NCBI GenBank assembly: GCA_017475235.1
Contig: JAFVGA010000001.1
Location: 69,240 to 133,239, forward strand
DNA length: 64,000 bases
Source: Eubacterium sp.
GTDB lineage: Bacteria; Bacillota; Clostridia; Lachnospirales; Lachnospiraceae
Reading direction: 5' to 3'
Shown: positions 25,109-62,956 of the stretch, piece by piece
How the letters are laid out: the number at the start of each line of letters is the position of its first letter
How positions within the stretch are numbered: the stretch's first letter is position 1
Position numbers and translations under genes: made by a program
The notes under the pieces: model-generated
The model's input: only the letters and a program-made list of their open reading frames with translations
What the model was told of the DNA's origin: nothing
The model's database searches: none

Positions 25109-26296
25109 ATGGGAGTATTTTCCGTAAATGAAAACCATTTCGGCCTCGGTTCACTTCCAGAGGTAGAAATGAACGAAGCATATACTACAGGTGTAGATAT
25201 GGCCATTGCCCTTGTAGAATGCAAGCAGAACGAATTTGCTGTTCTCCAGGCAGGCATTAAGCAGGATATGATCGCTGCAGTCACAGAAGACCTCGAAGAA
25301 AGAGAAGCTATCAACGAAGCTACAGCTTCTGATGTAGTTAATAAGGTTAAGGAAATCCTCAAGAAGCTTCTTGAAAAGATTAAGAGCATCTTCCATGCTT
25401 TCATGGCTAAGGTTAACTCATTCTTTGTCGATGGCGAAAAGATGTTCAAGAAGTACAGCGGAGAAATAGCCAAGAAGAATTTTGCAGATTTTAAGCTTAA
25501 GGTAAGAGAATTCAAAAGAGATAAGTTTAACAATCTCGTAAAAAGTTCGACAGCAGGTAACAGCTATAAATTCGTTTTCCCTGATTTATCAGGCTACACT
25601 GATGATCAGATTAACGATGCTATGGAATCTGATAAGCTCACAGAATCAGGCTTAAAAATGACATTTACAGATGATGCAAACAAAGCAATGTCTATCGATG
25701 ACGACCTTGGCAATCTCGATAAAGAAGTAGAAGACTACTGCTTTGACGACGCAGAAACAAAGGATGATTGGTCATCTACTACTATCATTTCTTCTAATTG
25801 GATCGGCGGCCTTCTCAACACAAAGAAGTTTATCGAGGATATCGAAAAGAATAACAAATCTGTAGAAAATTTATTACAGAAACTTCTTAATGATATCGAC
25901 AAAGAAATCAAGAAGGTTTCAGGAACAGTTGGTAAAGCCGGAACAACTCATACTGTAACCCAAAAGCAGATAACTTTCGGCGGCGATGGCGCAAAATCTA
26001 AGTATGATAACAATATAGGAAATGACGCTAACGCTTCTGTTGGTGGTGGCGATAATGATGAAGTAAAGACAACCAAGCTTAAGAGCTTAGTTTATGTACA
26101 GTCTTATGTATCAAGATACCAGACTATTCAGATCAAGGCTCAGAATGCTCGTCTTTCATGCGCTAAGAAGGCTATGGCTCAGGCTAAGAAGATCTTCGCT
26201 GCAGCTGTTGCTTACAATCCTAAAAAGGAAAACTATGACTTCTACACAGCTGTTGCTGAATCTGAAGAATTCGATGCAGCAATGGCTCTCGAATAA
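25109..26296 (+). CDS. Inner-head-like protein, paralogue 1
   Basis: 395 residues beginning MGVFSVNEN. First of four adjacent related genes with the same architecture: an acidic N-terminal region of about 70 residues, the motif AINEA (Glu70-Ala71), a basic amphipathic helix (KVKEILKKLLEKIKSIFHAF), a variable middle and a helical C-terminus ending EFDAAMALE. The [IV]-x-E-A site matches T4-type prohead-protease cleavage sites, and the spacing is nearly identical in three of the four, which suggests a removable propeptide. In phiKZ-like phages paralogous, protease-trimmed proteins form the inner body; equivalence here is inference. Codon use is biased toward C-ending codons, as in highly expressed genes. 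A strong AAAGGAGG precedes the start. Confidence 0.7.
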   Translation: MGVFSVNENHFGLGSLPEVEMNEAYTTGVDMAIALVECKQNEFAVLQAGIKQDMIAAVTEDLEEREAINEATASDVVNKVKEILKKLLEKIKSIFHAFMAKVNSFFVDGEKMFKKYSGEIAKKNFADFKLKVREFKRDKFNNLVKSSTAGNSYKFVFPDLSGYTDDQINDAMESDKLTESGLKMTFTDDANKAMSIDDDLGNLDKEVEDYCFDDAETKDDWSSTTIISSNWIGGLLNTKKFIEDIEKNNKSVENLLQKLLNDIDKEIKKVSGTVGKAGTTHTVTQKQITFGGDGAKSKYDNNIGNDANASVGGGDNDEVKTTKLKSLVYVQSYVSRYQTIQIKAQNARLSCAKKAMAQAKKIFAAAVAYNPKKENYDFYTAVAESEEFDAAMALE

Positions 26297-26317: not shown

Positions 26318-27496
26318 ATGGGCGTATTTAACGTTTCTAGTGTAAACGAAGGATTCGATTTCACACCTTCAGAACTTGATACTGTTAATGCAGACAATAT
26401 CATGATGGCAGAAAACTTCGCTGAAAAGGCCATCATGGATTCTGCAGACTACATTCAGGAACATTCAGATCTTGTAAGGCTCATGGCCGGCCAGGAAATT
26501 TCAATTACCGAAAGCGGTCAGGAAGTCGTTTATGAGGCTGCTACTCTTGAAGGTCTTGGAGAAAAATTCAAGGCTCTCATCAAGAAAGCTATCGAAAAAA
26601 TCAAGAGTCTTATTTCAAAGGTTGTCGCTGTGTTTACTAGCTGGATCAATAGCGATAAGGACTTTATTAATAAGTATTCTAAGACTTTTACTACAAACTG
26701 GGTGAAGCTTAAGAAGCTTAAGATTAAGGCTTATAAATATCATGCTGATATAAAGGCGGGTAAGCTTAGTGTTGTTTATCCGGATGATTGTCATAAGACT
26801 ATTACTCAGGCTGTATACGCAAGGTACTCTCTTCCTTCAATTACTACAAGCTCTTCAGCAGCTGAAGCAAAGGCTTTTGTTGAAGCCGTTAACAAGATAG
26901 ATACTGAGCAGAAAAACGACTATATCAGAGGTTTAGTGCTCCAAGCTATAGACGGTAAGCTTCCAGCTGACGCTTCTTCAAAAGAGCTTTCAGACGAACT
27001 TTATGAATACTGGAGAACAGGTGATTCTGCTAAAGATACAATGGATAAGAGCGATCTTGAAGCAAACGGCTATTCAGCTGCCAATATTATTTCTACTCTC
27101 CAGAACAATGAGAAGATCGTTAACGAAACCAAAAAGGGCTTTCTTAAACTAGAAAAGGCTTTAAGAAAGTGGGAAAAGGAGAATGTGGACAAGCCTCTCA
27201 AGCAAGTAACTAAATTCGAATCTGGTGCATCTCAGGAAGAAAATGAAGTAAGAACTGGTTTAGCCGCATTCTTTACTTTAGCTAGCGCAAACTGTTCTAC
27301 AGCAACAGAAGCTATTCATTCGGCTACAGGCATCTTCTTACAGCTCTGTAAGGAATATTCAAGAACATGTAAGTCAATCGCAACTAAGGTTGTAGCTATG
27401 GGTGAGAAGAGACTTGCTCAGGAAGAATCATATGACTTCGGTAACGATGATGATGGTTACAACACAAGTTATATGAACGCTGTAGTTATCAAGTAA
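26318..27496 (+). CDS. Inner-head-like protein, paralogue 2
   Basis: 392 residues beginning MGVFNVSS, 21 nt after paralogue 1 and in the same operon. The acidic N-terminal part ends at VVYEA (Glu73-Ala74), followed by a basic amphipathic helix (KFKALIKKAIEKIKSLISKV). The middle region is diverged and the C-terminus is helical, ending in an acidic/aromatic tail. The same putative propeptide length as paralogues 1 and 3 is the strongest sign that the N-terminus is cut off during head maturation. AAAGGAGG lies before the ATG. The operon appears to end at the terminator at 27520. Confidence 0.7.
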   Translation: MGVFNVSSVNEGFDFTPSELDTVNADNIMMAENFAEKAIMDSADYIQEHSDLVRLMAGQEISITESGQEVVYEAATLEGLGEKFKALIKKAIEKIKSLISKVVAVFTSWINSDKDFINKYSKTFTTNWVKLKKLKIKAYKYHADIKAGKLSVVYPDDCHKTITQAVYARYSLPSITTSSSAAEAKAFVEAVNKIDTEQKNDYIRGLVLQAIDGKLPADASSKELSDELYEYWRTGDSAKDTMDKSDLEANGYSAANIISTLQNNEKIVNETKKGFLKLEKALRKWEKENVDKPLKQVTKFESGASQEENEVRTGLAAFFTLASANCSTATEAIHSATGIFLQLCKEYSRTCKSIATKVVAMGEKRLAQEESYDFGNDDDGYNTSYMNAVVIK

Positions 27497-27555: not shown

Positions 27556-27579
27556 TAAACGATAAGGAGGAATATGACA

Positions 27580-28749
27580 ATGGGAAGTTTATTTAATATA
27601 AACAATGTACTTGTTACTGAATCATCCTTATATGCTAATACAGCTTTAGAAGAACTTACAGAGTGTCATTACAAGAAGTCGTTTATGTCTATGGCATATG
27701 ATTATATTGCAGAGAGTACTACATTCTACTATGAACTTAACAAGAATTTTTATAAAACTGTATTAGAATCCTATGGGGATTTCTATGTTATTAACGAAGC
27801 ATTTGAAGGCTTCATCGATAAAGTAAAAGAAATCATCAAGAAGTTTCTTGAATTTATCAAGCGAGTATTCAATGAATTTATCGCTAGACTGAACGGTATG
27901 TTTAGAAGTGAAAAGTATCTCAAGAAACATCTTAAAGATCTCAATAAGTTTAATTCAGATCATGAATTCGAATATTCTGGATACGAATTTACACACATCA
28001 GAGATAGCAAACCGGATGTACTAGTATACGATCTCGTAATGGGATCGGCAGTTCCGATTGCGTCTGGCACGGTTTCACAAAGTGCTAATGGTGGCGATCT
28101 TGGTAAAAATATAAAAGATGCATATGATAAATTTAAAGATGAACTGAATGAAGATTACTACGATAAAGTTCGAGGTCATCTTATAGATGCTAATGGTGGT
28201 GTTACAGCATCGGATTTTCCTGATGAACTTTTTGCTTATTTCAGAGATGATTCTTCTGACAGAACAGAATTTACTGTAGATTCTTCTAGAGTTATCAAAG
28301 CTAAAACCGAATTCGAAAATTATCAGGATCTTAGAAAAGGCATCGAAAGAAGCAAGAAAGATATCGAACGAGAATACGAAGATACTAGAAAAGCTCTTGA
28401 AAAAGTTATCCATGTATCTGGTAAGCAAGTTGATTTATCAACAAGCAATCGTATGGCTGCTATGGCTCTGGGAATAGATGGTGCTGAAGCAGGCGAAAAG
28501 ACCAGAGACTTGGATAATGAAGTTAGCGTTAAAAATATTCAAATTTCTGGAAAGACTTCTGCCGCTGAAATAAGATCCACAATCGACTTATTTGTTAAGG
28601 CTAAAGTTTCTCAGGTTCAAATGCTTTCTAATATTCACTCACAAGTTTTCTCTGCTAAGCTCGAAGCCGCTAAAGATGAATTTATACAGAACAAGACAAT
28701 TCTGTATAGAGCTCTTTACAAAGTTCTCGGCAAACAGCAGAAGCTTTAA
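27580..28749 (+). CDS. Inner-head-like protein, paralogue 3
   Basis: 389 residues from the second ATG (27580), preferred because AAGGAGG is 9 nt upstream, whereas the first ATG at 27574 is only 3 nt from it; MGSLFNIN then aligns with MGVFSVNE and MGVFNVSS. The acidic N-terminal part ends at VINEA (Glu73-Ala74), followed by the basic amphipathic helix (KVKEIIKKFLEFIKRVFNEF). The C-terminal half is a long charged helix (around YEDTRKALEK). It has no promoter motif of its own, so it probably depends on read-through of the terminator upstream. Function as an inner-head or ejection protein is inferred from the paralogues. Confidence 0.68.
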   Translation: MGSLFNINNVLVTESSLYANTALEELTECHYKKSFMSMAYDYIAESTTFYYELNKNFYKTVLESYGDFYVINEAFEGFIDKVKEIIKKFLEFIKRVFNEFIARLNGMFRSEKYLKKHLKDLNKFNSDHEFEYSGYEFTHIRDSKPDVLVYDLVMGSAVPIASGTVSQSANGGDLGKNIKDAYDKFKDELNEDYYDKVRGHLIDANGGVTASDFPDELFAYFRDDSSDRTEFTVDSSRVIKAKTEFENYQDLRKGIERSKKDIEREYEDTRKALEKVIHVSGKQVDLSTSNRMAAMALGIDGAEAGEKTRDLDNEVSVKNIQISGKTSAAEIRSTIDLFVKAKVSQVQMLSNIHSQVFSAKLEAAKDEFIQNKTILYRALYKVLGKQQKL

Positions 28750-40182: not shown

Positions 40183-40198
40183 AAGGAGGTAAACTTAT

Positions 40199-43100: not shown

Positions 43101-45202
43101 TGTACGCGTATAGAAGATACGCTCAAGTTATTATTATTACCGATGGCTATTATGGCGATTCTTCATTCCAAGATATTGAAAATTTCGAAACGAATTTCAA
43201 CAATATCATGCAATTGATATGTTTTGAAAATAATATTCTTGGTTCTAAATTATCTAAATTAGATATATCAGCTCTTGAAGAACGCACAGCAGCTATTGAA
43301 ACAAAGCTCGAACCTTTAACCGATGATGTATCAGTTCTTTCAGACGCCACAAAGTCTATCATTCAGAAGTATCCTATTAAATTAGCTACTTCTTCTGATA
43401 GCGGATTTAATGGAGCTCTAAAAATAAATGCTGATACATATGATCCAGAAACAACAACGTCGGTTTCTTTAACTTACTACAATTATTACGACTCATCTAA
43501 ATCTAATTATCGTAATCCAGCTAATCCTGAGACTCCAATGTTAGTTGAAGATAAATTTGTTGCTGTTCCGGCGTTTATTGATATTCCAGAAGTATTAGGT
43601 ATTCCGTCATTCTCATCTGCGTCACAATTAAAAGAATACTGCAAGAATATTTCTGTTCGGTTCAATAGAAACCAGAGTATTAAGGTTGATTTGGCTAATA
43701 ATAACACAAATGTTTATTCTGGAGCTAATGTATTTATCAGGGATATTTACTTTAGAACATACTCTACAGCTCAGGCTCCTGCACAAGCTGCTACATACAA
43801 CACCAAGATTACTAATTCTAATCCTATCGCTGATTTAATTGATACATCAAGCTCCATAGGATTTATTCCGATCTTCGTATTTATCCTTGAGGTAATTCCG
43901 GATCCTAATTATACTGTTCCACTAAAGAACGTTCTTGCACAACAGAATTTTGGAAAGTTTATTAATTCGCTTTGTGAGATCTCATTCAATAAAGTTCGAG
44001 ATGCAGAAGATAAAGCACAAGAAGCTGTCGAAAATATGTCTTCAGTTGCGGGCTCAGTAGACAATATCTCTGAAAGTATGTCGGATTATATGAGCACAAA
44101 GTGGTTACCTACTCCAATAGCATTCCCTGATGAAGCACTCGAAAATGAGTCAGAACCTAGTGGAAATAGCAAGAACTATGACTTCCTATTATATCCTACA
44201 TTCGTGGATGTACCACATTCAACTGGTTCTTCTGTAGAGGGTAAAAAGAGCCGTTATTCGGTTAAACCTATTCCGGAATCTGGTGAGAATACTACAGTAA
44301 AAGCACTCTATGAAAGCGAAGACTCGATGTATCTGTTATTTGGATTCTTCGGTGAAAAACTGTTACCAGAATCCTTAGGAGGAGACTATACAATTCCTGA
44401 AACATATAACGAAAATACAATCGAAAGCTTTAATAGAACAAGTAAGACATTATGGTATTCAGACATATATTTGAATATGCAGAATACATTTAGTTACTCG
44501 ATGATTAAGGGTATTAGAGACTCTTTAGTTGAAATTGATGTATCTAATATATTCCTTAATTTCAACCCACGAGTTATTAAATCTCTGTATGCTAAGGTGA
44601 CTGCTGATCCTGGAAATGAGTTGACTCATTCTTCATTTACAGACCGTGGATTAAACAATATGGAAGATTTCGTTAAAATTCCATATGCTAATATTCAGGA
44701 CATCAATACTATTTCTATGGAAGACATAGTTAATATGTGTGGTAGACCGGATAAGACTAAATCTTCAGGAAACAGCAAAGCTGTAATTCTGTTTATTGCC
44801 GAAATCGACAAGAGCAGTTTCCCTGGTTTAGCATCATTGTCAACACCAGCTTATGGTGTATCGAATACAACATCAGATATTTTAGCTATCTATCAGGCAA
44901 TGTTTGCTAATAATAGTGAATCATCGCCTATATATATGGCTAGATCTATTGATGATTCTCTTAAGAAAACTAAAGAAGTTGCTGTAGAAGCCGCTCGCTA
45001 TGCCGCAGCAACATTAACTGCCGCTAAACATTATGACACATTAAGTGATTTAAAGCGGATAATTAGCGAAGGTGAATCTGGTTACATCGTTAGAAACGGT
45101 GAAACAGAAGGAACATCTGTTGCTGATGTGTATATTAAGACAACAGAAGGAGCTCTTATCAAAATTGCTTCAGGAGTGGAATACGAAGCTCCTATATCTT
45201 GA
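40199..45202 (+). CDS. Very long fibre protein with repeated domains
   Basis: 1,667 residues. Type I anchor at the N-terminus (MAINILQELNLGAAKASFSR, YPNNYDIFCKEDGCKYRLNK, GKWRRVD). The body holds about four or five diverged beta-rich repeats of roughly 250-330 residues, each with a segment like FFIKDVYVKIYG, VFIRDIYFRTYS or LWYSDIYLNMQN and separated by helical stretches (AKKLNDILTDGD, VKKLNDSLNEED, TNKAVELALPAE). A helical region (EVAVEAARYAAATLTAAKHY) and a short beta tail close the protein. Length and repeat plan suggest a long trimeric fibre. The start follows AAAGGAGG. No enzymatic motif was seen. Confidence 0.7.
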   Translation: MAINILQELNLGAAKASFSRDEVETLADIKKLDVAQKYPNNYDIFCKEDGCKYRLNKTSHSTMQDNLPHPTGKWRRVDSVISSNMPAPITVGDVVLYLGPTVLDHSKVKFQTGKYYRTEYTKVNKQMYAFVQNTAPDVPDTSPNPAVIWFSETSSLSEGSVLFTPVNGSIFDNKEHGIIMTSDWDGQSAISGSSYEYLDNSNNVKLGMVRNSNFDITFDSFPELTWNMFDTEAELENIKQNVIPEAISSATEDIKTEVKEDVNANLGQAKKLNDILTDGDIRLLKQGGTEKLVSSKPDATVSDSTIGFVQCDCNRNEETGEVTLNITNVKYGPFTSEEIAENAFVDESEVIVPSGGQFTIYAITCSVTNKVKDAIFHPLKDSNLYQGTISFDVMSFVSRLQQGLPLVVGFAAAAPYKDGEHSGSVDSNTYVSMYNLLEYLESSPPTFSNVPVSEIPDIKNRAVELLENETTLDLILFVMGGGDADAQLASSNVLELLNEQFVIGTEASGILNEFPTMRNEIEDSITEEFSNVKKLNDSLNEEDVDAIVSRPRELIFDVKSPYITYGNKLLTECTFVKLEFDNGKATITDSATVSDVMADLPGGIQEWLHDGCPAILFGIKQNNNYIGYRYSDTYTVNNCSFKVDHNGPFIDIDRKPENMFGISEVYFAIGNNENEQRNIIADFTACKFTNISIYAPGTEDVDGRHLFGDLIGDYEEDGDPITLRYYNKSNYTVLYGIALLTASPNIVSVTDFTAKNVIASINKRAIPMYQESGLLIDFPKMEEEVVSVKQTANKAVELALPAETKEYINKNIVDYKNLTLSGVQNYNNNNFTHFVSLGVETYDHSDANRTITPVFINYFDDTKEDYATSSTVPVFHPNKTRDTYVGIFGYLDFAQTKQELVDKLRGIVVKYDRDASYYDNINKYFFIKDVYVKIYGAEIADFINSTGWVRVDPGSDLGEVFENISDTLYAYRRYAQVIIITDGYYGDSSFQDIENFETNFNNIMQLICFENNILGSKLSKLDISALEERTAAIETKLEPLTDDVSVLSDATKSIIQKYPIKLATSSDSGFNGALKINADTYDPETTTSVSLTYYNYYDSSKSNYRNPANPETPMLVEDKFVAVPAFIDIPEVLGIPSFSSASQLKEYCKNISVRFNRNQSIKVDLANNNTNVYSGANVFIRDIYFRTYSTAQAPAQAATYNTKITNSNPIADLIDTSSSIGFIPIFVFILEVIPDPNYTVPLKNVLAQQNFGKFINSLCEISFNKVRDAEDKAQEAVENMSSVAGSVDNISESMSDYMSTKWLPTPIAFPDEALENESEPSGNSKNYDFLLYPTFVDVPHSTGSSVEGKKSRYSVKPIPESGENTTVKALYESEDSMYLLFGFFGEKLLPESLGGDYTIPETYNENTIESFNRTSKTLWYSDIYLNMQNTFSYSMIKGIRDSLVEIDVSNIFLNFNPRVIKSLYAKVTADPGNELTHSSFTDRGLNNMEDFVKIPYANIQDINTISMEDIVNMCGRPDKTKSSGNSKAVILFIAEIDKSSFPGLASLSTPAYGVSNTTSDILAIYQAMFANNSESSPIYMARSIDDSLKKTKEVAVEAARYAAATLTAAKHYDTLSDLKRIISEGESGYIVRNGETEGTSVADVYIKTTEGALIKIASGVEYEAPIS

Positions 45203-45277
45203 TATGAAGAGCCTTCTTATAATGACGGCAATTAATACATCAATAGCATATTAAATTGTAACCAAACTAAAAGAAAG

Positions 45278-45306
45278 CGGGGAGTCTTCGGACTCCCCGT
45301 TTTATT
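45278..45306 (+). terminator. Terminator after the long fibre gene
   Basis: CGGGGAGTC and GGACTCCCCG form a stem with a small TTC loop, followed by TTTTATT. Confidence 0.85.
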
Positions 45307-45312
45307 AGTTTG

Positions 45313-45324
45313 AACATTTTAATA
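45313..45324 (+). promoter_or_regulatory. Late-type promoter AACA-N6-TA
   Basis: TTGAACATTTTAATAAAA: AACA-TTTTAA-TA ends 26 nt before the ATG at 45350, right behind the terminator of the long fibre gene. Confidence 0.6.
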
Positions 45325-45349
45325 AAATAATTATAAAGGAGGTAAACCT

Positions 45350-46411
45350 ATGGCTATTAAGCTTCTTCAAGGTATAGATTATAAGGGTACTCAGCCTAAC
45401 TTTACTAGAGACTTTGTAAATACTAAAGCAGAGTTAGCGTCTAATAGTATTCTTAAAAACTATCCTAATATTTATGAAATATTCTGTCTCGAAGATGGTT
45501 GTAAATACCGTCTCGATAAGTCAAGACACGAAATAGATCCTGTATTAGGTAAATGGCGTAAAGTAGCTGATGTATGGACTCCAGGTGGAGATACTCCTTC
45601 TGGCGGCGGTACTGCTATTTGGTATGGTACATCAGAAGAACTTACTCCGGAAGAAGAAGCGGAAATTGGGGCTGACACCCTCATGTTCGTTAATAACGAT
45701 TCTGCTGGAGTTACTACTGTATATTATAAGAAATCGGATGGAAAAGATCTTATCACGGAATTATATACTAAATCCAAGATAGATACTATGTTTTCTGATA
45801 TAATCGAAAGTTTACCATATACAGCTCCTACTGTTTCGCTTTCTACTTCTAAGACAACAGAAATTCATGGTAATACTCTTGAAAATGTAACACTCAATAT
45901 CAGAATCTCTTCTTCTCAGAAGTATATAACTATCAAGAAGATTGAACTTTTTGTTGGGGATACACTTCTTGCTGATGATTTCGATGTTACTGTAGAATCA
46001 ACTTCATATACATATAATGTGCCAGTAACAGATGATACTACATTCAAACTCAAAGTTACTGACTCATATAATAAGGTAACTGAAAAGTCAGTTAAGATCG
46101 ACTTTGTATGGCCTACATATACTGGTATTCTTGCTGAATTCAACCCAGAAAATATCGATTTAAGCCAACTTACTCAGAAGATCCAGACTTCAAAAGGATT
46201 CACATGGACAGGAATTACTTGTACTAATAAGCTCCTTATCTATATGTATCCGGCAGAGTACGGTGCTCTTAACAACATCGTAGACGAAAATAACTTCAGT
46301 ATCAAAGATAGCTTTATTAAGGTTAATAAGACTATTGATGGTGCAGAGTTTATTTTATATTATTCCGAAGAGTCTTGTACTCTTAGTAACGGAAAAATAG
46401 TATTCTCGTAA
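45350..46411 (+). CDS. Fibre/adhesin protein with type I anchor and Ig-like plus tip domain
   Basis: 353 residues: type I anchor (MAIKLLQGIDYKGTQPNFTR, YPNIYEIFCLEDGCKYRLDK, GKWRKVADVW), a Gly/Ser hinge, an Ig-like domain beginning PYTAPTVSLSTSKTT, and a C-terminal domain (YTGILAEFNPENIDL, YMYPAEYGALNNIVDENNF, LSNGKIVFS) shared with the end of the next gene. Its own late-type promoter follows a terminator, so it starts a new transcription unit. Probable receptor-binding fibre or decoration. Confidence 0.7.
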   Translation: MAIKLLQGIDYKGTQPNFTRDFVNTKAELASNSILKNYPNIYEIFCLEDGCKYRLDKSRHEIDPVLGKWRKVADVWTPGGDTPSGGGTAIWYGTSEELTPEEEAEIGADTLMFVNNDSAGVTTVYYKKSDGKDLITELYTKSKIDTMFSDIIESLPYTAPTVSLSTSKTTEIHGNTLENVTLNIRISSSQKYITIKKIELFVGDTLLADDFDVTVESTSYTYNVPVTDDTTFKLKVTDSYNKVTEKSVKIDFVWPTYTGILAEFNPENIDLSQLTQKIQTSKGFTWTGITCTNKLLIYMYPAEYGALNNIVDENNFSIKDSFIKVNKTIDGAEFILYYSEESCTLSNGKIVFS

Positions 46412-46449
46412 TACTACTGATATATTGATTATAAAGGAGGAATATTTTT

Positions 46450-48057
46450 ATGCAAATTATTACTAATTTTACTTCATCGATGACTAAGTTCCTTGATGAC
46501 AGACAGAAGTGGGCTTCACTTGCAGCTCTTCAGGCTAACGACTCTGTTTATATGCCTGATGGTTTCCAAGTATACTGCGCTAATGAACAGGCTTGGTATC
46601 AGCTTTCTACAACTGATGAAAAGGACTTCTCTAAGTACACATGGTCACCAATCGGTGCTGACGCTGGCAATATCTCTTATGATAATACAGATTCAGGACT
46701 CGAAGCTACAGATATGCAGGATGCTGTAGACGAACTTGCTGGTATTTCATATACAGTAGTTAAGTTTACAGGTCAGGATGCAGGTGACTATGCAGCTGTT
46801 TACAAGCTCCAGAAGCTTAACGCCCTCGAAGATCCGGACGATCCAGGATATACTCCAACATATGTTGGTGAAGCTATCAATATCCCTAAGGATATGGTAG
46901 TATCTGCTGGTGAAGTTAAGACTCTCACAGATCAGGATACTCCAATTCCAGGTATTGCAATTGGCGAAAAGTATATCGATCTTACTCTTGCAAATTCAAA
47001 CAACTCACATGTATACATCAGAGTTGCTGACCTTGTAGATGATCAGGCTACAGCTATTAACTATAGCATCGATGCTTCTACAACAACAACAGTTGCTGCA
47101 GTTCTCGATGATCTTAGAGCTAAGTGTGCAAACCTTGATTCAGAAGGTGACATTACAGCAGCTCATGTAGTAGTAGGAACACATACAGAAGAAGAAGGCG
47201 GCGAACAAGTAACAGTCAAGGATACTCTTGCTGCTCTTATCACTGCTCTTAATGGTAAGACTGTTAATCTCGATGCAAACGGCAAGCTTGCTGCAGCTAA
47301 TGTTACTTATTCTAACACAGATGCTCCAGCTGCTGTAGAAGATGCAGATGCCGCACTTGATGATCTCTACACAAGAACAATTGCTACAGAAGCTAACATC
47401 AGAAAGATCGCTGCAGGTGAAGCTCTCAAGCCAGAATTCACTTTTGCTTCTTCACAGACATCTTACCTTAACGCAGTAGGAACAACTGTAACAGCTCCTG
47501 TATTCACAATCACAAATACAGAAGTTGGTATCGCTACAGCTTCTACATTCAGTGTATCAGCCACATTCACAACCGGCGGCTCATCAACAGAAGTTGGTCC
47601 GGCTACATTCACAAACAATGTCGCTACAATTACTGCACCTGCTAATATCACAGCAGATACAACAGTAACAATTGTTGTTTCATACAAGTTCCCTGGCGAT
47701 ACATCATTCAGAACAATCACAAAGACATTCAGCTACACATTCGTATCACCATCTTATGTTGGTACAGTAGCAGAGTCTGCTGATCTTACTGATGATACAG
47801 TAATCACAGCTCTTACATCAGTTGTAAAGAGCTCTAAGGCTTACTCATACACAAGCATCACAGGAACAAACAAGAAGGTTGTATATGCATATCCTAAGTC
47901 ATTCGGTGCTATCTCTAGCATTAAGGATGAAAATAACTTCTCAGTTACAGATGCATTCAATCTCGCAACAGAACTTACAATTGACGGCGTAGCTTACTAC
48001 ATCGTAAACTCAAAGGCTACAATGACACTCAGCGGTGGTTCACTCATCTTCAGCTAA
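46450..48057 (+). CDS. Fibre/adhesin protein with type II anchor, Ig-like and tip domain
   Basis: 535 residues. A different N-terminal module (MQIITNFTSSMTKFLDDRQK, MPDGFQVYCANEQAWYQL), a long Ala/Thr/Asp-rich middle with helical registers (DMQDAVDELAG, DALDDLYTR-type), an Ig-like domain (VTAPVFTITNTEVG), and a C-terminal domain (SYVGTVAESADL, YAYPKSFGAISSIKDENNF, LSGGSLIFS) clearly homologous to the end of the preceding gene. Codon use is the most C-biased in the region, which fits very high expression. It shares the tip but not the anchor with its neighbour, a sign of domain shuffling. Confidence 0.7.
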   Translation: MQIITNFTSSMTKFLDDRQKWASLAALQANDSVYMPDGFQVYCANEQAWYQLSTTDEKDFSKYTWSPIGADAGNISYDNTDSGLEATDMQDAVDELAGISYTVVKFTGQDAGDYAAVYKLQKLNALEDPDDPGYTPTYVGEAINIPKDMVVSAGEVKTLTDQDTPIPGIAIGEKYIDLTLANSNNSHVYIRVADLVDDQATAINYSIDASTTTTVAAVLDDLRAKCANLDSEGDITAAHVVVGTHTEEEGGEQVTVKDTLAALITALNGKTVNLDANGKLAAANVTYSNTDAPAAVEDADAALDDLYTRTIATEANIRKIAAGEALKPEFTFASSQTSYLNAVGTTVTAPVFTITNTEVGIATASTFSVSATFTTGGSSTEVGPATFTNNVATITAPANITADTTVTIVVSYKFPGDTSFRTITKTFSYTFVSPSYVGTVAESADLTDDTVITALTSVVKSSKAYSYTSITGTNKKVVYAYPKSFGAISSIKDENNFSVTDAFNLATELTIDGVAYYIVNSKATMTLSGGSLIFS

Positions 48058-48154
48058 TAAGACAACTTATTAACTATAGAAAAAATTATGAGGGAGTAGT
48101 CTATGGCTACTCCTTCATCTTTAAATATTTATATCAAAAGGAGGGAATTAGTAT

Positions 48155-48445
48155 ATGCAGATAATCTCTAACTTTACATCATCTCAGGATAACTTCCTTG
48201 ATGGTAGACAGAGATGGGCTTCTAAGTCTGCTCTTGAGGCAAATAATTCTGTAATTATGCCTAATGGTTTCCGGGCTTTTTGTGTATCAGAAGGAAAGTG
48301 GTATAAGCTTTCTACATCAAACCCAAAGAACTTCGCTACATATACATGGACTGAAGATATATCTGCTGTAGATGCGGAACTTCAGAGTATCACACAACAA
48401 GATATGGATGCTTTGTTCGAAGATGAAGAGGAACAGAATCCTTAA
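48155..48445 (+). CDS. Short fibre protein consisting of the type II anchor module only
   Basis: 96 residues: the type II module (MQIISNFTSSQDNFLDGRQR, MPNGFRAFCVSEGKWYKL) followed by about 20 acidic residues. It parallels the lone type I module at 39746. An AAAGGAGGG site precedes the ATG, so it is probably translated. Either a capping protein for unoccupied anchor sites or a leftover from loss of the tip domain; intact frame and binding site favour a function. Confidence 0.65.
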   Translation: MQIISNFTSSQDNFLDGRQRWASKSALEANNSVIMPNGFRAFCVSEGKWYKLSTSNPKNFATYTWTEDISAVDAELQSITQQDMDALFEDEEEQNP

Positions 48446-54846: not shown

Positions 54847-57800
54847 ATGATTGAATTTGAAGATGATATATCCTTAGATTCACCATCTATAGAAATGGTT
54901 GATTATAAGACTGTGCAGGCGAGAAAATTCTCAAAAGACACACATCTTATGATTATCACTAAGAGGCAGACTAAGGAAGAATTAGATGCAGATTACGCTC
55001 AGTATCTTAGACTTACGATCAAGCAAAAGCTTAAGGCTAATGATATGGCGAGTAAGCTGTTTGGTATGACTAATGACCAGTTGTATAATCAATACAAGAA
55101 AGTATTTGAATTCGGTAAAGAAGATACTCCTGGTTATGTGGATACAACATCAGATATTAATACTGGTTTAGACCACGATTATATCAATAATGACGAAGAA
55201 GATATCCCTATGGACATCATTACAAGAGATGTAAATAGAGATACATTTGTAGGACAATTGCAGGAGTCTATGGATTTAGAAAACATCGAAGAAACTAACT
55301 GCGGTGTAGATAATCCAGCATTCTTCACTCCATATGAAATTCTTACATATGAGGGATTATATTCAGATACGCCTGACATAGATTCTCTTAATGAAGATAT
55401 ATCAGTTCTGGATTGGTATAATAACTACACAAGAAGCTTTAACGGTTTAATCACTGAAAATTATTATCCGGTGTGGTTAGAAAAGATGAGGTCTCTATAT
55501 TCTGATTATGATAGACTTGAGGGTCAGGCTTTACTTGATAGACAGCAGTCTATTGTAAATTTAGGATGGAATCCTGAAATACCATTCAATGAGCATAATA
55601 TCGAAGTAGGAAAGAAAAGACTCGAAAGAGAATGTAAATATGCCCAAGATATATACGAAGATTATTCTCGAGTAGGAGAATTATCAGATAAAGCAACGGC
55701 TATTAACGAGTCTATAGATACTACAAAGGATCTTCCTGTATATGTAGTACTCACTAAAGGAAATATTCCATTCTTATCAGACGCAATAAGAGCATTTACC
55801 GATTCAGAATACTCTCATGCTGGTATAGCATTTGATCCGAAATTAGATAAGATTCACTCATTTGCTATTGCTGGTTCAAGTGGATATCAGGTAGAAAATA
55901 TCAGGAGCCGTACATCTGTAGAATCAGTATTCTTATTCTTCTTAAAGAAAGAAAAAGTTCTGGCGATGCAGAAAGAAATCGGTAACTTTGCAATGAATGT
56001 CAATAAGACTACGTACTCTATGGGTGGTCTTATTGGTAAAGCTGTTAATGTAAAATACAGCAATGGAAATAAGTACAATCAGGTATGTAGTAGTTTCGTA
56101 AATTACGTTCTTCAGATTGGTGGAATTGATTTCGTTAAGACCAAGAATGATAGTTTAGCTTCTCCTGCGGATATATACAATGCTCTTATGACTAGACCTA
56201 AGAACGTATACAAAGTATATGAGGGTGAAGGTGATAAGTACGATGCTAATAAGACTAGCAAAATAGTTAAAGCTATCATCAAAGCTAAAGAATCAAGAGC
56301 ATTACATCCTATAAGAACTATCAAAGACAGAATAACTGCTAATGAAGACTATATCGAAGAAAAAGCTAAGCCTAATGTATGCTATAGAGTTGTATATGAC
56401 GGTGCTGATATATATCAGAGTATCAAGATGGGTATGTTTAATGATACCAGAGGTATGAAAGAATGGGAGAACTTTACTGCTTCTAAGAAGTACACTTGGG
56501 ATCAAATACCGAGTGATAAGAAACCGAGTGGAGGTAAAGTGTACTATACCGAAAAGGGCTTAAAGGCTTTCAATTCTAAAGTACTTCCTACAGCAAAGCT
56601 TTATCTTGATAAGTCTAAAATCAAAACTCAGGTATTCATGATAGATCCTGAAAAGATTTCTTATAAGGATGAATACCATATAGTAGCATCTAAGGCTTTA
56701 TCTAAAGTCCATGAATCAGTAGAACTTCCTGATATATACGAGAATATTCCTTACGGATATTTCGGAATGTTTCTTGAAGAAGCTGTTGATATTACCAATA
56801 GTATGGAACTTCCTGATTCGATCGAAGTAAGCAAAGTGATAAAATCAGTTCCAAAGGATGAACCCGAATTTGTTACAGAAGCATTAAATCTTCCACCAGG
56901 ATACTCTCTTAGACCTGCTAAAGCTTCTGATATGGATTATATGTACGAATGCGAGATGGCTAGTATAGAACCTAGACTTGCTCGTCAGAAAAAAGTACAA
57001 GACTATATCAAACAGGATGTAAAGGATGCTGTAAAAGATACAAAGATTATCATGTATAAAAAAGATGTAGTCGGCGTATTCACTTGCTGTTATATTGATG
57101 GTGGCGAACGTTGGTATATTGCTGAGATCTTTGTAGATAAAGCTCATAGAGGAAATGGTATCGCTACAGCTCTCATCAAGAATGAATTAAGCAAGCATCC
57201 TAAAGTAAGACTTCAGGTTGCACTTTCTAATGGAAAGGCTAAGAGACTATATGAACGTCTTGGCTTTGAAGTCACCAAGAAGGATGAAAAGAATGGTATG
57301 TATATAATGGACTGGGAGAAAGGAAAATCTGTAGAAGAGTTCCCGGATAAAAATACTCCAGTTATTCAGGAAGCAAGGAATTCTTATAACTGCATTTCAT
57401 ATGCTATGGGAATGGACAATTCTATCAATAGTCTTAAGTCTAAAGGATTTAAGATTACTCCCGATGATGGTGACTATAAAGTAGAATTTGATTCTTCTAA
57501 TAGCAAGATATGGGAAACCTATGTGGAAGACCATATTGAAGACACATATTTGAATGAGTATATCAATCTAGATTCTAAAGAAATCACATTCTTATTTAAA
57601 GAGAATGGAAAGATCACCAAGATGAAGAATCGAAACCTTAAAGACGATCCTAAACTTTTGAATACTTGTAACAGGCTTGGGGGTTTTGATTTTAAAACAA
57701 CTGAAGAGTTGATATATTCGAATGATTGGTATAAATCAAAACTCAAATCTATCGAAGAAGCGTGTAAAGATGTAAATGCAGCAAGACAGTTTGTTTCAGA

Positions 57801-58392
57801 TGTAAAAGATTTAGCTAAGAAATATGACGCTAATTTCTTTTTAGTAACAGATGGAGCATCTGGCACTCATAATGATGGGACTAATGCGGCCGTTAAACAT
57901 GCAAGAGATACCCATAGAGAATGGGAATTAAAACATGGATTTGATCCAGAAGAAGACTGGGGGAAAAATAAGAAGAAGTCTATCGGAGAAGCAGTTTCTA
58001 TGGATGATGAAGGAAATATGATTATCTATAGAGCAACTCTTAACACTCTTGACTATGGTGATGCTATCAATAAATCTTCTGAGTTATGCAAGCTTTATAA
58101 ACAGTCTTCTAATATAGAAGGAATCAAGTATGAGCTTTGTAAACTCTGGTATATTAATTGTATGCTCGAAAAGAAGATTAAACGAAATGACAAGAATAAA
58201 GAAAAGTATGTCAATGATAGACGTATTTGTATGAATGTCTTTAAGACATATATGAAGCACGTTAATACTGTAGACGATGACTTTAATTTTGTTGAATACT
58301 ATAATGCTACACCTTATGGCGGAGCAATCCGTATAGACAAGAATACATTAAAGTATTCTATTAAAGCATTAAAAGAATTAATGAGGGGGTGA
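54847..58392 (+). CDS. Multidomain polyprotein: papain-like (YiiX/NlpC-type) domain, GNAT acetyltransferase, unknown domains
   Basis: 1,181 residues. Order: helical N-terminal 285 residues; a papain-like domain (about 290-480) with YSHAGIAF (His324) and VCSSFVNYVL (Cys414), in the His-before-Cys order of permuted NlpC/P60 enzymes; an unrecognised domain (500-640); a GNAT acetyltransferase (684-835) with RGNGIATALI (768-777) and KRLYERLGF; an unrecognised domain (843-1045); and a helical C-terminal domain (1049-1181). At each border sits [ILV]-x-E-[AS]: INES (Glu288), LEEA (645), VTEA (678), IQEA (842), IGEA (1048). These match T4-like prohead-protease sites, so I infer a polyprotein cut in the head, its enzymes packaged. 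Alternatively one large multifunctional virion protein. Domain calls are good; processing is inference. Confidence 0.75.
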   Translation: MIEFEDDISLDSPSIEMVDYKTVQARKFSKDTHLMIITKRQTKEELDADYAQYLRLTIKQKLKANDMASKLFGMTNDQLYNQYKKVFEFGKEDTPGYVDTTSDINTGLDHDYINNDEEDIPMDIITRDVNRDTFVGQLQESMDLENIEETNCGVDNPAFFTPYEILTYEGLYSDTPDIDSLNEDISVLDWYNNYTRSFNGLITENYYPVWLEKMRSLYSDYDRLEGQALLDRQQSIVNLGWNPEIPFNEHNIEVGKKRLERECKYAQDIYEDYSRVGELSDKATAINESIDTTKDLPVYVVLTKGNIPFLSDAIRAFTDSEYSHAGIAFDPKLDKIHSFAIAGSSGYQVENIRSRTSVESVFLFFLKKEKVLAMQKEIGNFAMNVNKTTYSMGGLIGKAVNVKYSNGNKYNQVCSSFVNYVLQIGGIDFVKTKNDSLASPADIYNALMTRPKNVYKVYEGEGDKYDANKTSKIVKAIIKAKESRALHPIRTIKDRITANEDYIEEKAKPNVCYRVVYDGADIYQSIKMGMFNDTRGMKEWENFTASKKYTWDQIPSDKKPSGGKVYYTEKGLKAFNSKVLPTAKLYLDKSKIKTQVFMIDPEKISYKDEYHIVASKALSKVHESVELPDIYENIPYGYFGMFLEEAVDITNSMELPDSIEVSKVIKSVPKDEPEFVTEALNLPPGYSLRPAKASDMDYMYECEMASIEPRLARQKKVQDYIKQDVKDAVKDTKIIMYKKDVVGVFTCCYIDGGERWYIAEIFVDKAHRGNGIATALIKNELSKHPKVRLQVALSNGKAKRLYERLGFEVTKKDEKNGMYIMDWEKGKSVEEFPDKNTPVIQEARNSYNCISYAMGMDNSINSLKSKGFKITPDDGDYKVEFDSSNSKIWETYVEDHIEDTYLNEYINLDSKEITFLFKENGKITKMKNRNLKDDPKLLNTCNRLGGFDFKTTEELIYSNDWYKSKLKSIEEACKDVNAARQFVSDVKDLAKKYDANFFLVTDGASGTHNDGTNAAVKHARDTHREWELKHGFDPEEDWGKNKKKSIGEAVSMDDEGNMIIYRATLNTLDYGDAINKSSELCKLYKQSSNIEGIKYELCKLWYINCMLEKKIKRNDKNKEKYVNDRRICMNVFKTYMKHVNTVDDDFNFVEYYNATPYGGAIRIDKNTLKYSIKALKELMRG

Positions 58393-58397
58393 TAAGA

Positions 58398-59119
58398 ATG
58401 CCTAGACCAAAAACCGAATTATTCCTTCTCATGTCTGTAGACGGAAAGATATCCACTGGCGATACAGATGATTTTGATGTAGATAAAGATATTCCTAGAA
58501 TCCCAGGAGATCCATCAGCAGGATTACATCAGTATTATGAGGAAGAACTTGAAACTTCATTGTGGCCTATAAACTCCGGAAGAGTTCTTGCTAAAGTAGG
58601 AGTGAACGAGAAACCTATACCAAAAGATCAGGAGAAGAATGTAAACTTTGTCATATTAGACAATAATCATTTAAATTCCCATGGTGTGGAAGTTATGTAT
58701 AAGCGTTCTAAGATGCTTGTTATAGTCACATCCAATAAGAGTCATCCTGCATATAAGCTTAAGAGTAATCTCAAGAATATCACTATTATAGAATATAAAG
58801 GAGAAATGAATCCTGTTGAGATTCTTAATAAAATAAACTTGGAGAGTTGGGCTGTAAAGAAGCTACGATACAGACTGGTGGAACTCTTAATAATATGTGG
58901 CTTAGATCTAGTTGTATAGACCTTTTGAATATTGTGGTTACTCCTATATTAGTAGGAGGAAAAACCGTATCCACTTTAATAGATGGTCCTGCAGCTAAGA
59001 GTTTAAGTGACTTACGAGGATTAGAACTAATAAGTGTTAAGAAAATGAAGAATTCATATCTTCAGTTACGCTATAAAGTAAATAATCCTAAACAAGGAAA
59101 AGCTGTTATTATAAAGTAA
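58398..59119 (+). pseudogene. RibD C-terminal-type reductase gene split by a -1 frameshift
   Basis: From the ATG at 58398 (AGGGGGTG upstream) the first frame gives PKTELFLLMSVDGKISTGD and LWPINSGRVLAKVGVN, typical of the RibD C-terminal/DHFR-like NADPH reductases. At about 58838 homology moves to the -1 frame, which continues GELGCKEATIQTGGTLNN, then IVVTPILVGGKT, the family's glycine and C-terminal motifs, to 59119; the first frame runs on to a TAG at 58919. The site AATAAAC is not a clean slippery heptamer. So this is a broken gene, a sequencing error, or a programmed frameshift. If functional it would be an NADPH-dependent reductase of the riboflavin or folate type. It directly follows the polyprotein gene. 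Confidence 0.7.
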
Positions 59120-61044: not shown

Positions 61045-62073
61045 ATGATATCGTTTTTCAATGGTACAAAAGAGGGGTACGAGGAATATAAATATGTTCC
61101 TTGCACCTCATATGGAAATTTCGCGTTTTTAACAACAAACACTATAGCCTCAGGTTACCCTAAACCGAAAGAAGTCATATATCTCAACAACGATCAGGTG
61201 TATGATCTTTTTAATATCATTCCATCATTCAATAAAAAGAATGTGGAAAACGCAAGAAAAAATAAAGACAATTTAAAGGGAGAACAAATTTCTACAGATA
61301 TAATTCTCGCTGGTACACTCCCATCAAAAGACATCCAGATCTGTTTTTCTGAATCTGAAAATGAAATGTACAGAGGACAGATAATGGTAATGGAACCCGA
61401 GGAGATAATAAATGCGATAAAAGTGTATAGAAAAGAAGACCCAGATAAAGCCATAACCATAGGAGCGATTAAGATCGAATGTGAGTTCGATGCTAATACG
61501 AAATCACCATTATTTTATACATTTCAGTGTCCATTAAGGATATCTTCGGACATTATGCATATAGATTGGTTTCCGATGTTAAGTTGTAAAAAATCAACTT
61601 ATGATCTTATAACGTCGAAAATCAAATCAGATAAAATTTTCGTAGAAACTTTTATTGATATAGTAATCCATATGAGGGATGTAGTATTGTGTTCTTGGAT
61701 TGCAATTCAGATGGCTTTATTAAATCCTGTTATCAAAGAGCGATTTACAAAAGAAACAATTCCGGCTCCAGAAGATAACAAAAAGAACGACACCAAAACA
61801 ACAAAAACGAAAAAATCTCCGAAAAGATATATCAAAAGAATCACAATGGGTGATATCTCCGATATAAAAATAGGAGAAAAAGAAAAAGGGCATCATCAGA
61901 TGTCTGAATCCTTCTGGTGGGTTTCAGGACACATCAGAAATCAGAAAACAAAGGATGGACATAAGCTAATTTTCATTCAGGGCTATTGGAAGGGTCCTCT
62001 CAGAGAAACAGCTGAGAAACTCTACGATACTCCGAGGGAGAGGGAGCTTATACTAGAAGATGGAGGAAAGTAA
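61045..62073 (+). CDS. Phage protein of unknown function with SGHIR/KG motif
   Basis: 342 residues from the ATG at 61045 (AAAGGAGG upstream), 13 nt after the previous gene. The C-terminal block SESFWWVSGHIRNQKTKDGH, then FIQGYWKGPL, matches a motif I recall from various phage and plasmid proteins ('w.VrGH.R....G...i.py.KG') of unknown function. A Lys/Thr-rich linker (around residues 252-268) separates it from the N-terminal domain. No enzyme signature. Middle of an early-type operon. Confidence 0.55.
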   Translation: MISFFNGTKEGYEEYKYVPCTSYGNFAFLTTNTIASGYPKPKEVIYLNNDQVYDLFNIIPSFNKKNVENARKNKDNLKGEQISTDIILAGTLPSKDIQICFSESENEMYRGQIMVMEPEEIINAIKVYRKEDPDKAITIGAIKIECEFDANTKSPLFYTFQCPLRISSDIMHIDWFPMLSCKKSTYDLITSKIKSDKIFVETFIDIVIHMRDVVLCSWIAIQMALLNPVIKERFTKETIPAPEDNKKNDTKTTKTKKSPKRYIKRITMGDISDIKIGEKEKGHHQMSESFWWVSGHIRNQKTKDGHKLIFIQGYWKGPLRETAEKLYDTPRERELILEDGGK

Positions 62074-62074
62074 A

Positions 62075-62956
62075 ATGACAGAAAACGACTTTTTAAACCC
62101 GACCTATGCTCCGAGCTATGCTTTTTCGATCTATCAGATATTAGATCCGAAGAAACGAGTAACTGTACTAGCGGAACCAAAAATAGAAAATATAGTGCAG
62201 TCGGATTATTCCTTTGTGTATGCATCAAATGATCATAGAATAAAATTTCTTGATCTCGAACATGATATCACAGGAAGAAATTATCCGGTATACAATTTCT
62301 TAAATGGCGTATTTAGACGTTGTAATCTAGGAGATATATCCAGATATTTTCCGTCTTTAAGTGTCGGTGATGTTATAGTATTGAATCATGCAGGGAAGTT
62401 CTATGCTTTCTTAGTTCAAAACATTGGATTCGAATTCATCCCTTCATGGAAATACGACTTAGAACCGAAAATATCTAATCCGGATATAATTCAAAAGATA
62501 TTAAGTGATCAATCAAGAGTCGCTAATGCGGCAAAATTGATTAGATACGGCGGAGCACCAGTACCTAGCGGATTGGATATTCGTGTCAAATATCCGTACT
62601 TTATAATAGCCGAATTATCACCTACTACAGAATTTAGAGTAGCGTCTTTAGCGAACAATTTAACTACTTTTGATATTCGTATACAGTCTATTCAAAATGA
62701 ATTCTGGCTGTATATTGAAGGAATAACAGGAGACGAGTATGGCATAAGATTAAAAATAAAAATTTCTGAAGACGACCAGATTTTTGATTATTCTACTTTA
62801 GATATAGTATACTACTATAAAAATGATACTAAAGTAGAGGATAATTATCATGATACTAAATTCGAAAACCTGATACACGAGTTCATATATGATCTTGCGG
62901 GTGATGTTCTTTTAAAAATACGCCCACTTGAAATCGGGGCTAAGAATGGTTTTTAG
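62075..62956 (+). CDS. Protein with YodL-like domain
   Basis: 293 residues from the ATG at 62075, which follows the previous TAA by one base and uses GGAGG inside the upstream gene. Residues about 75-130 (VYNFLNGVFRRCNLGD, SLSVGDVIVLNHAG, FYAFLVQNIGFEFI) resemble the YodL domain pattern 'SlSv.Dvi.l..G...yyv...GF', common in Firmicutes mobile elements and of unknown role. The remainder is beta-rich and unrecognised. Translation is probably coupled to the preceding gene. Confidence 0.5.
   Translation: MTENDFLNPTYAPSYAFSIYQILDPKKRVTVLAEPKIENIVQSDYSFVYASNDHRIKFLDLEHDITGRNYPVYNFLNGVFRRCNLGDISRYFPSLSVGDVIVLNHAGKFYAFLVQNIGFEFIPSWKYDLEPKISNPDIIQKILSDQSRVANAAKLIRYGGAPVPSGLDIRVKYPYFIIAELSPTTEFRVASLANNLTTFDIRIQSIQNEFWLYIEGITGDEYGIRLKIKISEDDQIFDYSTLDIVYYYKNDTKVEDNYHDTKFENLIHEFIYDLAGDVLLKIRPLEIGAKNGF

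What the first reader, a model, noticed from the sequence alone, without database searches (positions are those of the whole stretch)
54847..58392. Packaged-enzyme polyprotein: protease-type sites at every domain border
Five [ILV]-x-E-[AS] tetrapeptides (Glu288, 645, 678, 842, 1048) separate the N-terminal region, papain-like domain, unknown domain, GNAT acetyltransferase and C-terminal domains. T4-type prohead proteases cut after (I/L)-x-E. If cut, a papain-like hydrolase and an acetyltransferase would travel in the capsid and be injected into the host, a possible way to modify host proteins at once.
Basis: partly seen in the sequence, partly recalled or inferred. Interest (0 to 1): 0.85.

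Follow-up and report, generated by a model that had tools for sequence, protein, structure and literature searches.

The report
Phage cargo polyprotein with protease-site borders
A giant phage carries one long protein made of several enzyme-like modules, and in its relatives the modules are swapped around while short protease-type sites tend to stay at their borders, which suggests that the phage's own head-building protease cuts it into separate enzymes that travel inside the virus particle.

Summary
The 1,181-aa protein at 54847-58392 lies on a 245-kb jumbo-phage contig. No such site lies between the papain-like domain and the next one.

Relatives carry the case. Twelve other distinct proteins from virus contigs share the papain-like and C-terminal domains, and many carry different inserts (acetyltransferase, P-loop kinase, transglutaminase-like). 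The motif stands upstream of 18 of 29 domain starts (random 4.4; 0 of 5000 sets); motifs with other P3 or P1 residues are at chance. A held-out set is weaker (5 of 13 against 2.0). Four modules also occur as solo phage genes behind short leaders ending in the same motif, as in T4 packaged proteins.

Best reading: a modular cargo polyprotein, packaged in the prohead and cut by the phage protease. Cleavage, packaging and injection are inferred; none was shown here.

The parts
54847..58392 (+). g113, 1181-aa multidomain protein (proposed cargo polyprotein)
   Evidence: only match to itself in its own genome
54916..55113 (+). N-terminal helical repeat, residues 24-89 (two copies in L084/s036; pairs picked by eye in L085 and L087)
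   Evidence: AF2 pLDDT 67-82 per block
55258..55269 (+). site LQE140|S, before the FTP-type domain
   Evidence: counterparts VNE|A in L084, INE|S in L083
55312..55701 (+). FTPxE...LGWNPEI domain, residues about 156-285 (profile match 154-260)
   Evidence: scored in 10 of 12 relatives
55702..55713 (+). site INE288|S, 9 residues before the papain-like domain
55735..56241 (+). papain-like domain, residues 297-465, His324 and Cys414; C92/YiiX-like (weak, no Pfam match of its own)
   Evidence: AF2 about 293-480 mostly over 70
56353..56706 (+). unknown domain, residues 503-620; solo 126-aa homologue L010
56707..56718 (+). site VHE623|S
56773..56784 (+). site LEE645|A
56872..56883 (+). site VTE678|A, 8 residues before GNAT; its Glu is invariant in four GNAT contexts
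56902..57327 (+). GNAT acetyltransferase, residues 686-827
   Evidence: Pfam PF00583 E 1.6e-11; most structural matches span about 683/685-828
57364..57375 (+). site IQE842|A, after GNAT
   Evidence: LEE|A in L084 and VQE|G in t121 after GNAT
57373..57726 (+). unknown segment, residues 843-960; a P-loop kinase stands in this place in L084
57751..57762 (+). site IEE971|A, before the VTDGAS core; the least secure site (in a predicted helix, alignment ambiguous)
57766..57966 (+). VTDGAS domain, residues 974-1040; solo in Fusobacterium phages and u042
57982..57993 (+). site IGE1048|A, before the C-terminal domain; Glu in this column in 12 of 13 rows, strict motif in 5 of 13
58006..58389 (+). conserved helical C-terminal domain, residues 1054-1181
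   Evidence: AF2 pLDDT 77.7
25109..26296 (+). g083, predicted inner-head protein, site INE|A kept in r044 (INE|A) and s048 (VNE|N)
   Evidence: related to g085
26318..27496 (+). g084, predicted inner-head protein (weak PHROG, E 0.0023), site VYE|A, LYE|S in s047
27574..28749 (+). g085, predicted inner-head protein (weak PHROG, E 0.0013), site INE|A, INE|S in s046

Best explanation
g113 is a modular cargo polyprotein of a jumbo phage. A recurring backbone (N-terminal repeat, FTP domain, papain-like domain, C-terminal domain) carries exchangeable modules, here an unknown domain, a GNAT acetyltransferase, a second unknown segment and a VTDGAS domain. It is built into the prohead as one chain, and the phage's S80/gp21-type prohead protease then cuts it after Glu in [ILV]-x-E|[A/S, and perhaps G/N/V] linkers. 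That would yield roughly 1-140, 141-288, 289-623, two short spacers, 679-842 (GNAT), 843-971, 972-1048 and 1049-1181. The freed enzymes would leave with the DNA and act in the host. Shown here: the sites, the module swapping, the association of sites with borders, the protease gene, and solo versions with T4-like leaders. Inferred: cleavage, packaging, ejection, and any enzymatic role.
For: (1) Eight [ILV]xE[AS] against a shuffled mean of 2.0, none inside a domain as drawn from homologues. (2) A prohead protease is encoded at C26:67335-68258(-): Peptidase_S80 over cut-off, phrog_207 E 2.7e-24, 30% identity over 90% to a Bacillus phage Goe21 protein and matches to gp21 proteins. (3) In five aligned proteases, [ILV]xE sites stand near the N-terminus in 5 of 5 and after the catalytic domain in 4 of 5; in three predicted inner-head families the site before the presumed mature region is in 7 of 7 sequences. 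(4) The motif is 2.0 times expected in 10 predicted head proteins against 1.14 times in 179 others (own phage), and 2.5 against 1.02 in the relative (set chosen after I had seen the sequences). (5) Relatives carry different inserts and keep motifs at borders: 18 of 29 against 4.4 random and 2.5 window-shuffled, 0 of 5000 each; [SAG]xE and motifs with other P3 or P1 residues are at chance; density 10.3 per 1000 aa outside domains against 3.2 inside. (6) Glu of the pre-GNAT site invariant in 4 of 4; Glu before the C-terminal domain in 12 of 13. (7) Solo modules with leaders ending in the motif: GNAT r125 INE|A at residue 14, or 12 from its first ATG, transglutaminase-like r122 ILE9|A, papain-like JDFnp1_82 IAE9|S, VTDGAS JDFnp1_25 IAE11|S; background 33 of 754 proteins. 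r122-r125 are adjacent, and r123 and r124 have leaders like those of other predicted inner-head-type proteins there.
Against: No proteomics. 11 of 29 anchors lack the strict motif, and the held-out set is weaker: 5 of 13, P=0.037 against random windows and 0.005 against shuffles; there the N-terminal GNAT of L098 has no site before it. [ILV]xE followed by other residues was also raised at borders, 13 against 7.7 random (P=0.02), though not against shuffles. Before the C-terminal domain the column match is ambiguous: g113's IGE1048|A pairs with IGE|S of L084 in one alignment and with its ILNE|V in another, and only 5 of 13 rows fit the strict motif there. Likewise IEE971 pairs with the Fusobacterium leader site but not. 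g113 has no short N-terminal leader. Its gene is not beside the predicted head genes. A control motif, [ILV]x[KR][ASG], was at least as well kept in head orthologues (23 of 44 against 18 of 42), and several controls are raised in one phage or both. The motif also occurs inside domains: VYE459|G in g113, 18 in 13 proteins. One VTDGAS homologue, L048, has no site. An internal start at Met1052 has a Shine-Dalgarno-like sequence.
Confidence: 0.62

Rival explanations
1. An ordinary polyvalent protein: packaged and injected as one uncut chain, its linker motifs not used or used only at one or two places.
For: Polyvalent proteins with GNAT and peptidase domains are described, and some (N4 vRNAP, ArdC, TraC1) travel uncut (PMC5512222 section 8). 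11 of 29 borders lack the strict motif.
Against: The motif at borders is specific in P3 and P1 and recurs while modules change; solo modules have leaders ending in it.
Confidence: 0.22
2. The papain-like domain itself is the processing protease, as in RNA-virus polyproteins.
For: It aligns in g113 and all 12 relatives found; the Cys context is in 13 of 13 and the His context in 12 of 13 by pattern, L086 having SSHS there. Embedded peptidases were proposed to release domains of polyvalent proteins.
Against: The relative G098 shows the same motif in its head proteins, its protease and its solo GNAT, but no papain-like or backbone protein was found there by g113 or by family profiles (the record may be a fragment). 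The motif sits in the S80 protease itself. t121 has the sites without this domain by pairwise score.
Confidence: 0.06
3. Not packaged: a multidomain enzyme made in the infected cell, with motif matches that reflect linker composition or helix caps.
For: The count in g113 alone is not significant after correction for 154 proteins. The gene lies away from the predicted head genes. The held-out test is weak.
Against: Window-shuffle and alternative-motif controls, the site Glu before GNAT and before the C-terminal domain, and solo modules beside genes with inner-head-type leaders.
Confidence: 0.1

Closest known systems
T4 internal proteins and their capsid targeting sequence, cut by gp21 after L/I-X-E (PMC9026906, passages)
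   Same: Same cleavage pattern; solo modules in relatives have leaders of about 9-14 residues ending in it; homologous protease.
   Different: In T4 each cargo protein has its own leader; here several modules are in one chain, and g113 itself has no short leader.
SPN3US head maturation by gp245, and phiKZ gp175 (PMC10052503, passages; PMC9026906, passages)
   Same: S80-type protease; many head proteins cut after a Glu; several motifs in one propeptide; protease with a C-terminal propeptide.
   Different: SPN3US motif is A-x-E (S/A/G-x-E for phiKZ is recalled); here P3 is I/L/V. 13 of the 14 SPN3US sites remove N-terminal propeptides and one a C-terminal propeptide.
Polyvalent proteins of phages and plasmids (PMC5512222, passages and section 8)
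   Same: Many enzyme domains in one chain, GNAT and peptidase domains, proposed injection; likened there to polyproteins.
   Different: Release was there ascribed to embedded peptidases, including assemblin-like ones; here cuts by a separate head protease at module borders are proposed. No hallmark domain was seen in g113.
P1 DarA (PMC12810830, passages)
   Same: Internal antirestriction protein trimmed by the prohead protease.
   Different: One N-terminal trim, not a multi-enzyme chain.

Membership tests
Polyvalent proteins | Two or more different catalytic or conflict domains in one polypeptide of a mobile element | tested here: met
   papain-like, GNAT and further modules in one frame on a phage contig
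Polyvalent proteins | One of the hallmark domains (MPTase, ArdC-N, DdrB-ParB and others) | tested here: inconclusive
   none among the Pfam hits of g113 at E<=1; the published profiles were not available
Polyvalent proteins | Packaged and injected with DNA | not testable with these tools
   needs virion proteomics
T4-type capsid-targeted cargo | N-terminal leader of about 10 residues ending in [IL]xE | tested here: not met
   first site of g113 is at 140; met by solo relatives r125, r122, JDFnp1_82, JDFnp1_25
T4-type capsid-targeted cargo | Genome encodes a gp21/S80 prohead protease | tested here: met
Prohead-protease substrate | Sites at borders beyond linker composition | tested here: met
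   (18 of 29), weaker in the held-out set (5 of 13)
Prohead-protease substrate | Demonstrated cleavage | not testable with these tools
   no experiment
Viral polyprotein | One ORF giving several mature proteins by proteolysis | not testable with these tools
   architecture fits; cleavage unproven
Peptidase C92 (YiiX/YaeF) | Profile match over cut-off | tested here: inconclusive
   sub-threshold in L086, L088 and L003; none for g113's own domain; His and Cys kept

The most novel reading that the evidence does not exclude
Tailed phages of this clade use true polyproteins: one gene encodes several unrelated effector enzymes that share one packaging event and are separated inside the prohead by the capsid protease, with protease linkers acting as recombination points through which cargo modules are gained, lost and swapped.
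Probability: 0.52. Interest if true: 0.9.

Novelty: new variant of a known kind. Interest (0 to 1): 0.78.

Why it matters
If right, a polyprotein strategy best known from RNA and retroviruses (recalled) also operates in tailed DNA phages, coupled to capsid maturation. It would explain how giant phages could load many enzymes with few packaging signals. Leaders and linkers ending in [ILV]xE|[AS] would become a computable signature for finding injected cargo in the large unannotated part of jumbo-phage genomes. The isolated Fusobacterium phages make part of it testable now.

Tried and rejected
Whole-length single-sequence search of viral contigs found no relative; domain-wise profiles did. The unknown-domain profile A4 found none. 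Genome-contig scans with the MCP and the C-terminal domain found none. The SPN3US/phiKZ-type motif [SAG]xE was tested as the operative site and rejected: 6 of 29 borders against 6.9 by chance. Papain-like domain as the processing enzyme: judged unlikely (see rivals). PADLOC: no hit for g113 at E<=0.01. phmmer of the papain-like domain against PDB sequences: no hit at E<=1. Orthologue conservation of motifs gave a mixed result, one control being as good. VIA-align listed only GNAT folds, with many rows tied, so no substrate is claimed and the other domains of that model are untested by fold. The C-terminal domain model matched, in BFVD at E<=0.001, only two proteins: an 821-aa 'cysteine peptidase' of Myoviridae sp. 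ctwwN25 and a 965-aa protein of Myoviridae sp. ctYA416; their lengths and one name fit the same family, but I did not read them. Foldseek 'pdb' was busy. Paper searches for the idea listed no phage polyprotein cut by a prohead protease; I saw the rows listed and the cited passages only, one search returned nothing, and subscription journals and preprints are not held.
Full report
What was checked. The finding concerns one ORF, here g113 (54847-58392, 1181 aa). The window is part of a 245,370-base contig (C26) of an otherwise bacterial assembly. The contig encodes a multisubunit-type RNA polymerase beta subunit, a major head protein, head-and-packaging structural proteins and a head maturation protease, so it is read as a jumbo phage. 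No terminal repeat was found, so completeness is unknown.

The sites. Shuffles of the protein give 2.03 on average and reach 8 in 0.12% of 5000. Looser patterns ([IL]xE, [ILV]xE, xE[AS]) are not significantly enriched. Among 154 contig proteins of at least 150 aa g113 ranks second; this would not survive correction on its own, so the case had to come from elsewhere.

The protease. Peptidase_S80 is over its cut-off at C26:67665-68054(-) when the two pieces in the frame are summed (26 against 23.4 bits). The gene product (307 aa) matches phrog_207 (E 2.7e-24) and phrog_3014. It aligns over 90% of its length with a protein of Bacillus phage Goe21 (Takahashivirus), and 1566 phage records match, including gp21 annotations. 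T4 gp21 cuts after L/I-X-E (PMC9026906, passages); SPN3US gp245 cuts after A-X-E with Ser preferred at P1' (PMC10052503, passages).

Which motif does this phage use? In predicted head proteins [ILV]xE[ASG] occurs 27 times against 13.6 expected (10 proteins), and 185 against 161.8 in the 179 other proteins of at least 100 aa. In the relative G098 it is 29 against 11.7 (8 proteins) and 127 against 124.9 (136 others). [SAG]xE is at 1.10 and 0.99 in the two head sets. The head set was fixed after I had seen the sequences; g083 and g086 are in it by position, without a head PHROG hit. Proteins first noticed through the motif (g113, g052, g077, g212; r017, r050, r112) were left out of both sets. Controls raised in a head set (own, relative): [ILV]xQ[ASG] 1.74, 0.35; [ILV]xxE[ASG] 1.62, 1.80; [SAG]xE[AS] 1.60, 1.04; [ILV]xD[ASG] 1.37, 0.97; [ILV]xK[ASG] 0.99, 1.55; [FYWM]xE[ASG] 0.87, 1.85; reversed motif 0.51, 1.28. 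Alignments show the motif near the protease's N-terminus in 5 of 5 sequences (Asn after the Glu in one) and after its catalytic domain in 4 of 5, comparable to where SPN3US gp245 loses its C-terminal propeptide. In the families of g083, g084 and g085 it lies just before the presumed mature region in 7 of 7 sequences, one with Asn after the Glu. Over all orthologues the motif is kept at 18 of 42 head positions, 12 of 37 in the four left-out proteins and 30 of 159 elsewhere, but one control motif did as well in head proteins (23 of 44), so that test is mixed.

The family. Profiles of single domains found relatives that the whole sequence had not. The C-terminal domain finds 15 virus loci (8 of them already). 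They give 12 distinct proteins beside g113 (8, and 4 among the 7 added). The papain-like domain aligns in 12 of 12 and the FTP domain scored in 10 of 12. The rest varies: no further module recognised in L089 (501 aa); a P-loop kinase in L082, L083 (two), L084, L088 and L098; GNAT in L084 and, by pairwise score only, at the N-terminus of L098; a transglutaminase-like module in L085 and L086. In t121 (L051), which lacks this backbone by pairwise score, GNAT sits with a glutamine-deamidase domain (PF15644, 30.2 bits against a cut-off of 24.1) and a transglutaminase-like module. L084 aligns with g113 end to end except that a kinase stands in place of 843-1048 and 503-620 is missing; around GNAT and before the C-terminal domain it has IDE|A, LEE|A and IGE|S. 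S80 matches were found in 8 of 11 relatives' contigs searched (3 of 4, 5 of 7), over cut-off in 5; the three without one are records of 56-93 kb. The contigs of L095-L101 were not searched for it.

Statistics. For 29 domain starts (FTP, papain-like, GNAT, C-terminal) in 11 proteins, the 25 residues upstream hold [ILV]xE[ASG] in 18. Random windows of the same proteins give 4.4, and shuffling each window gives 2.5; 0 of 5000 trials reach 18 in either. At chance are [SAG]xE 6, [ILV]x[DNQKR][ASG] 6 and [^ILV]xE[ASG] 7. [ILV]xE followed by other residues is 13 against 7.7 (P=0.02), not enriched against window shuffles (11.6). Dropping L082 (76% identical to L084), or L082 and L083, leaves 17 of 26 and 16 of 23. 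Four further distinct proteins fetched later served as a held-out set: 5 of 13 against 2.0 random (P=0.037) and 1.3 shuffled (P=0.005), the same direction but weaker; some anchors there look poorly placed. Over 13 proteins, [ILV]xE[ASG] density is 10.3 per 1000 aa outside known domains (46 in 4472) and 3.2 inside (18 in 5581), Fisher P=1.2e-5, not corrected for relatedness; in g113 one such match, VYE459|G, is inside. The Glu before GNAT is invariant in four contexts. The Glu before the C-terminal domain is in 12 of 13 rows, but the strict motif in only 5 of 13, others having V after or Y, F, M before; and g113's IGE pairs there with ILNE|V of L082 and L084, whose own IGE|S lies upstream. In that looser sense the cleavage pattern may be hydrophobic-x-E.

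Solo modules. In G098 the GNAT is a gene of its own, 43% identical, with MSMDFNMSVFSINE|AAMTYTLRRA from a TTG or two residues fewer from the next ATG. Beside it lie r122, a transglutaminase-like protein (DUF553 E 0.0014, just below cut-off) beginning MSDVSFILE|A, and r123 and r124, whose leaders (MDIALESFSYDVIDE|G, MDIALESFNYDVVNE|V) resemble those of r041, r095, r098 and r099 there. In isolated Fusobacterium phage JD-Fnp1 the papain-like module is a solo 'cysteine peptidase' beginning MSILKEIAE|S and the VTDGAS module is solo with MNTSLIRKIAE|S. Over five phages 33 of 754 proteins have [ILV]xE[AS] with Glu at 8-16. Counter-cases: solo VTDGAS u042 has its site at 29, and L048 has none. Papain-like homologues in bacterial assemblies (L002, L003, L005) have no strict motif before the domain, as expected if they are not packaged. 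T4's IPIII needs only its first 10 residues for packaging (PMC9026906, passages).

Structure. AlphaFold on g113 with 11 other rows has mean pLDDT 56.5. Confident islands are about 20-90, 293-480, 686-830 and 1070-1160. All eight sites lie in segments under 50, but so do 562 of 1181 residues, including the 503-620 domain, which lacked alignment depth; 971 lies in a predicted helix. GNAT structures mostly align to 683/685-828, so 678 and 842 flank the fold. Top rows include RimI and Naa50-type protein N-acetyltransferases, tied with others; no substrate is inferred. The C-terminal domain alone is a confident helical domain (pLDDT 77.7) whose first residues, around the 1048 site, are under 50; its only strong BFVD matches are two longer Myoviridae proteins.

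Conclusion. The best-supported mechanism is a packaged, prohead-protease-cut cargo polyprotein (0.62). What is shown is a set of exchangeable modules whose borders carry a Glu-type motif shared with predicted head proteins and with solo cargo-like genes. What is not shown is any cut, any packaging or any injection. The closest described concept is the polyvalent protein, whose authors drew the analogy with polyproteins and proposed embedded peptidases (PMC5512222). A chain cut by the separate head protease at module borders did not appear in the searches I ran.

Noticed in passing
window 58389-58919 and 58847-59119 (+): RibD_C-like reductase (weak, E 0.074) appears split between two overlapping frames directly after g113.
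   Followed up: no
C26:60859-64282 (left of the window): A DNA-polymerase-like gene that is one piece in G098 (r084) is in two pieces here with a 270-aa ORF between; g198/g199 and g046/g048 likewise match one gene each in the relative.
   Followed up: no
C26:236899-237444 (-), g212: 181-aa protein with five [ILV]xE[AS] motifs, the lowest Poisson P on the contig; possible scaffold or inner-head peptide, orthologue r112.
   Followed up: partly
C26:44765-47779 (+), g052, near the major head protein: 1004-aa protein with [ILV]xE[ASG] sites crowded in its first 320 residues and others in r017; looks like a many-cut propeptide as described for SPN3US gp53.
   Followed up: partly
L042 and L044 (relative G098): r095, r096, r098, r123, r124: Five proteins share a C-terminal tag E-S-[YF]-[DN]-F-C-x-[IV]-R; r123 has VTE|S just before it.
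   Followed up: no
L051:2366-5581: Multidomain phage protein with a papain-fold glutamine-deamidase domain (PF15644 over cut-off) and a GNAT.
   Followed up: partly
window 62060-62956 (+), g120: Weak YodL match (PF14191, below cut-off), a domain that I recall being linked to polyvalent proteins.
   Followed up: no
window 37744-48445: Family of related neighbouring proteins g093-g099 (up to 1667 aa), unknown function.
   Followed up: no
L098:2791-6405, residues about 169-213: P-loop kinase module gives a weak PADLOC VakA hit (E 6e-5).
   Followed up: no
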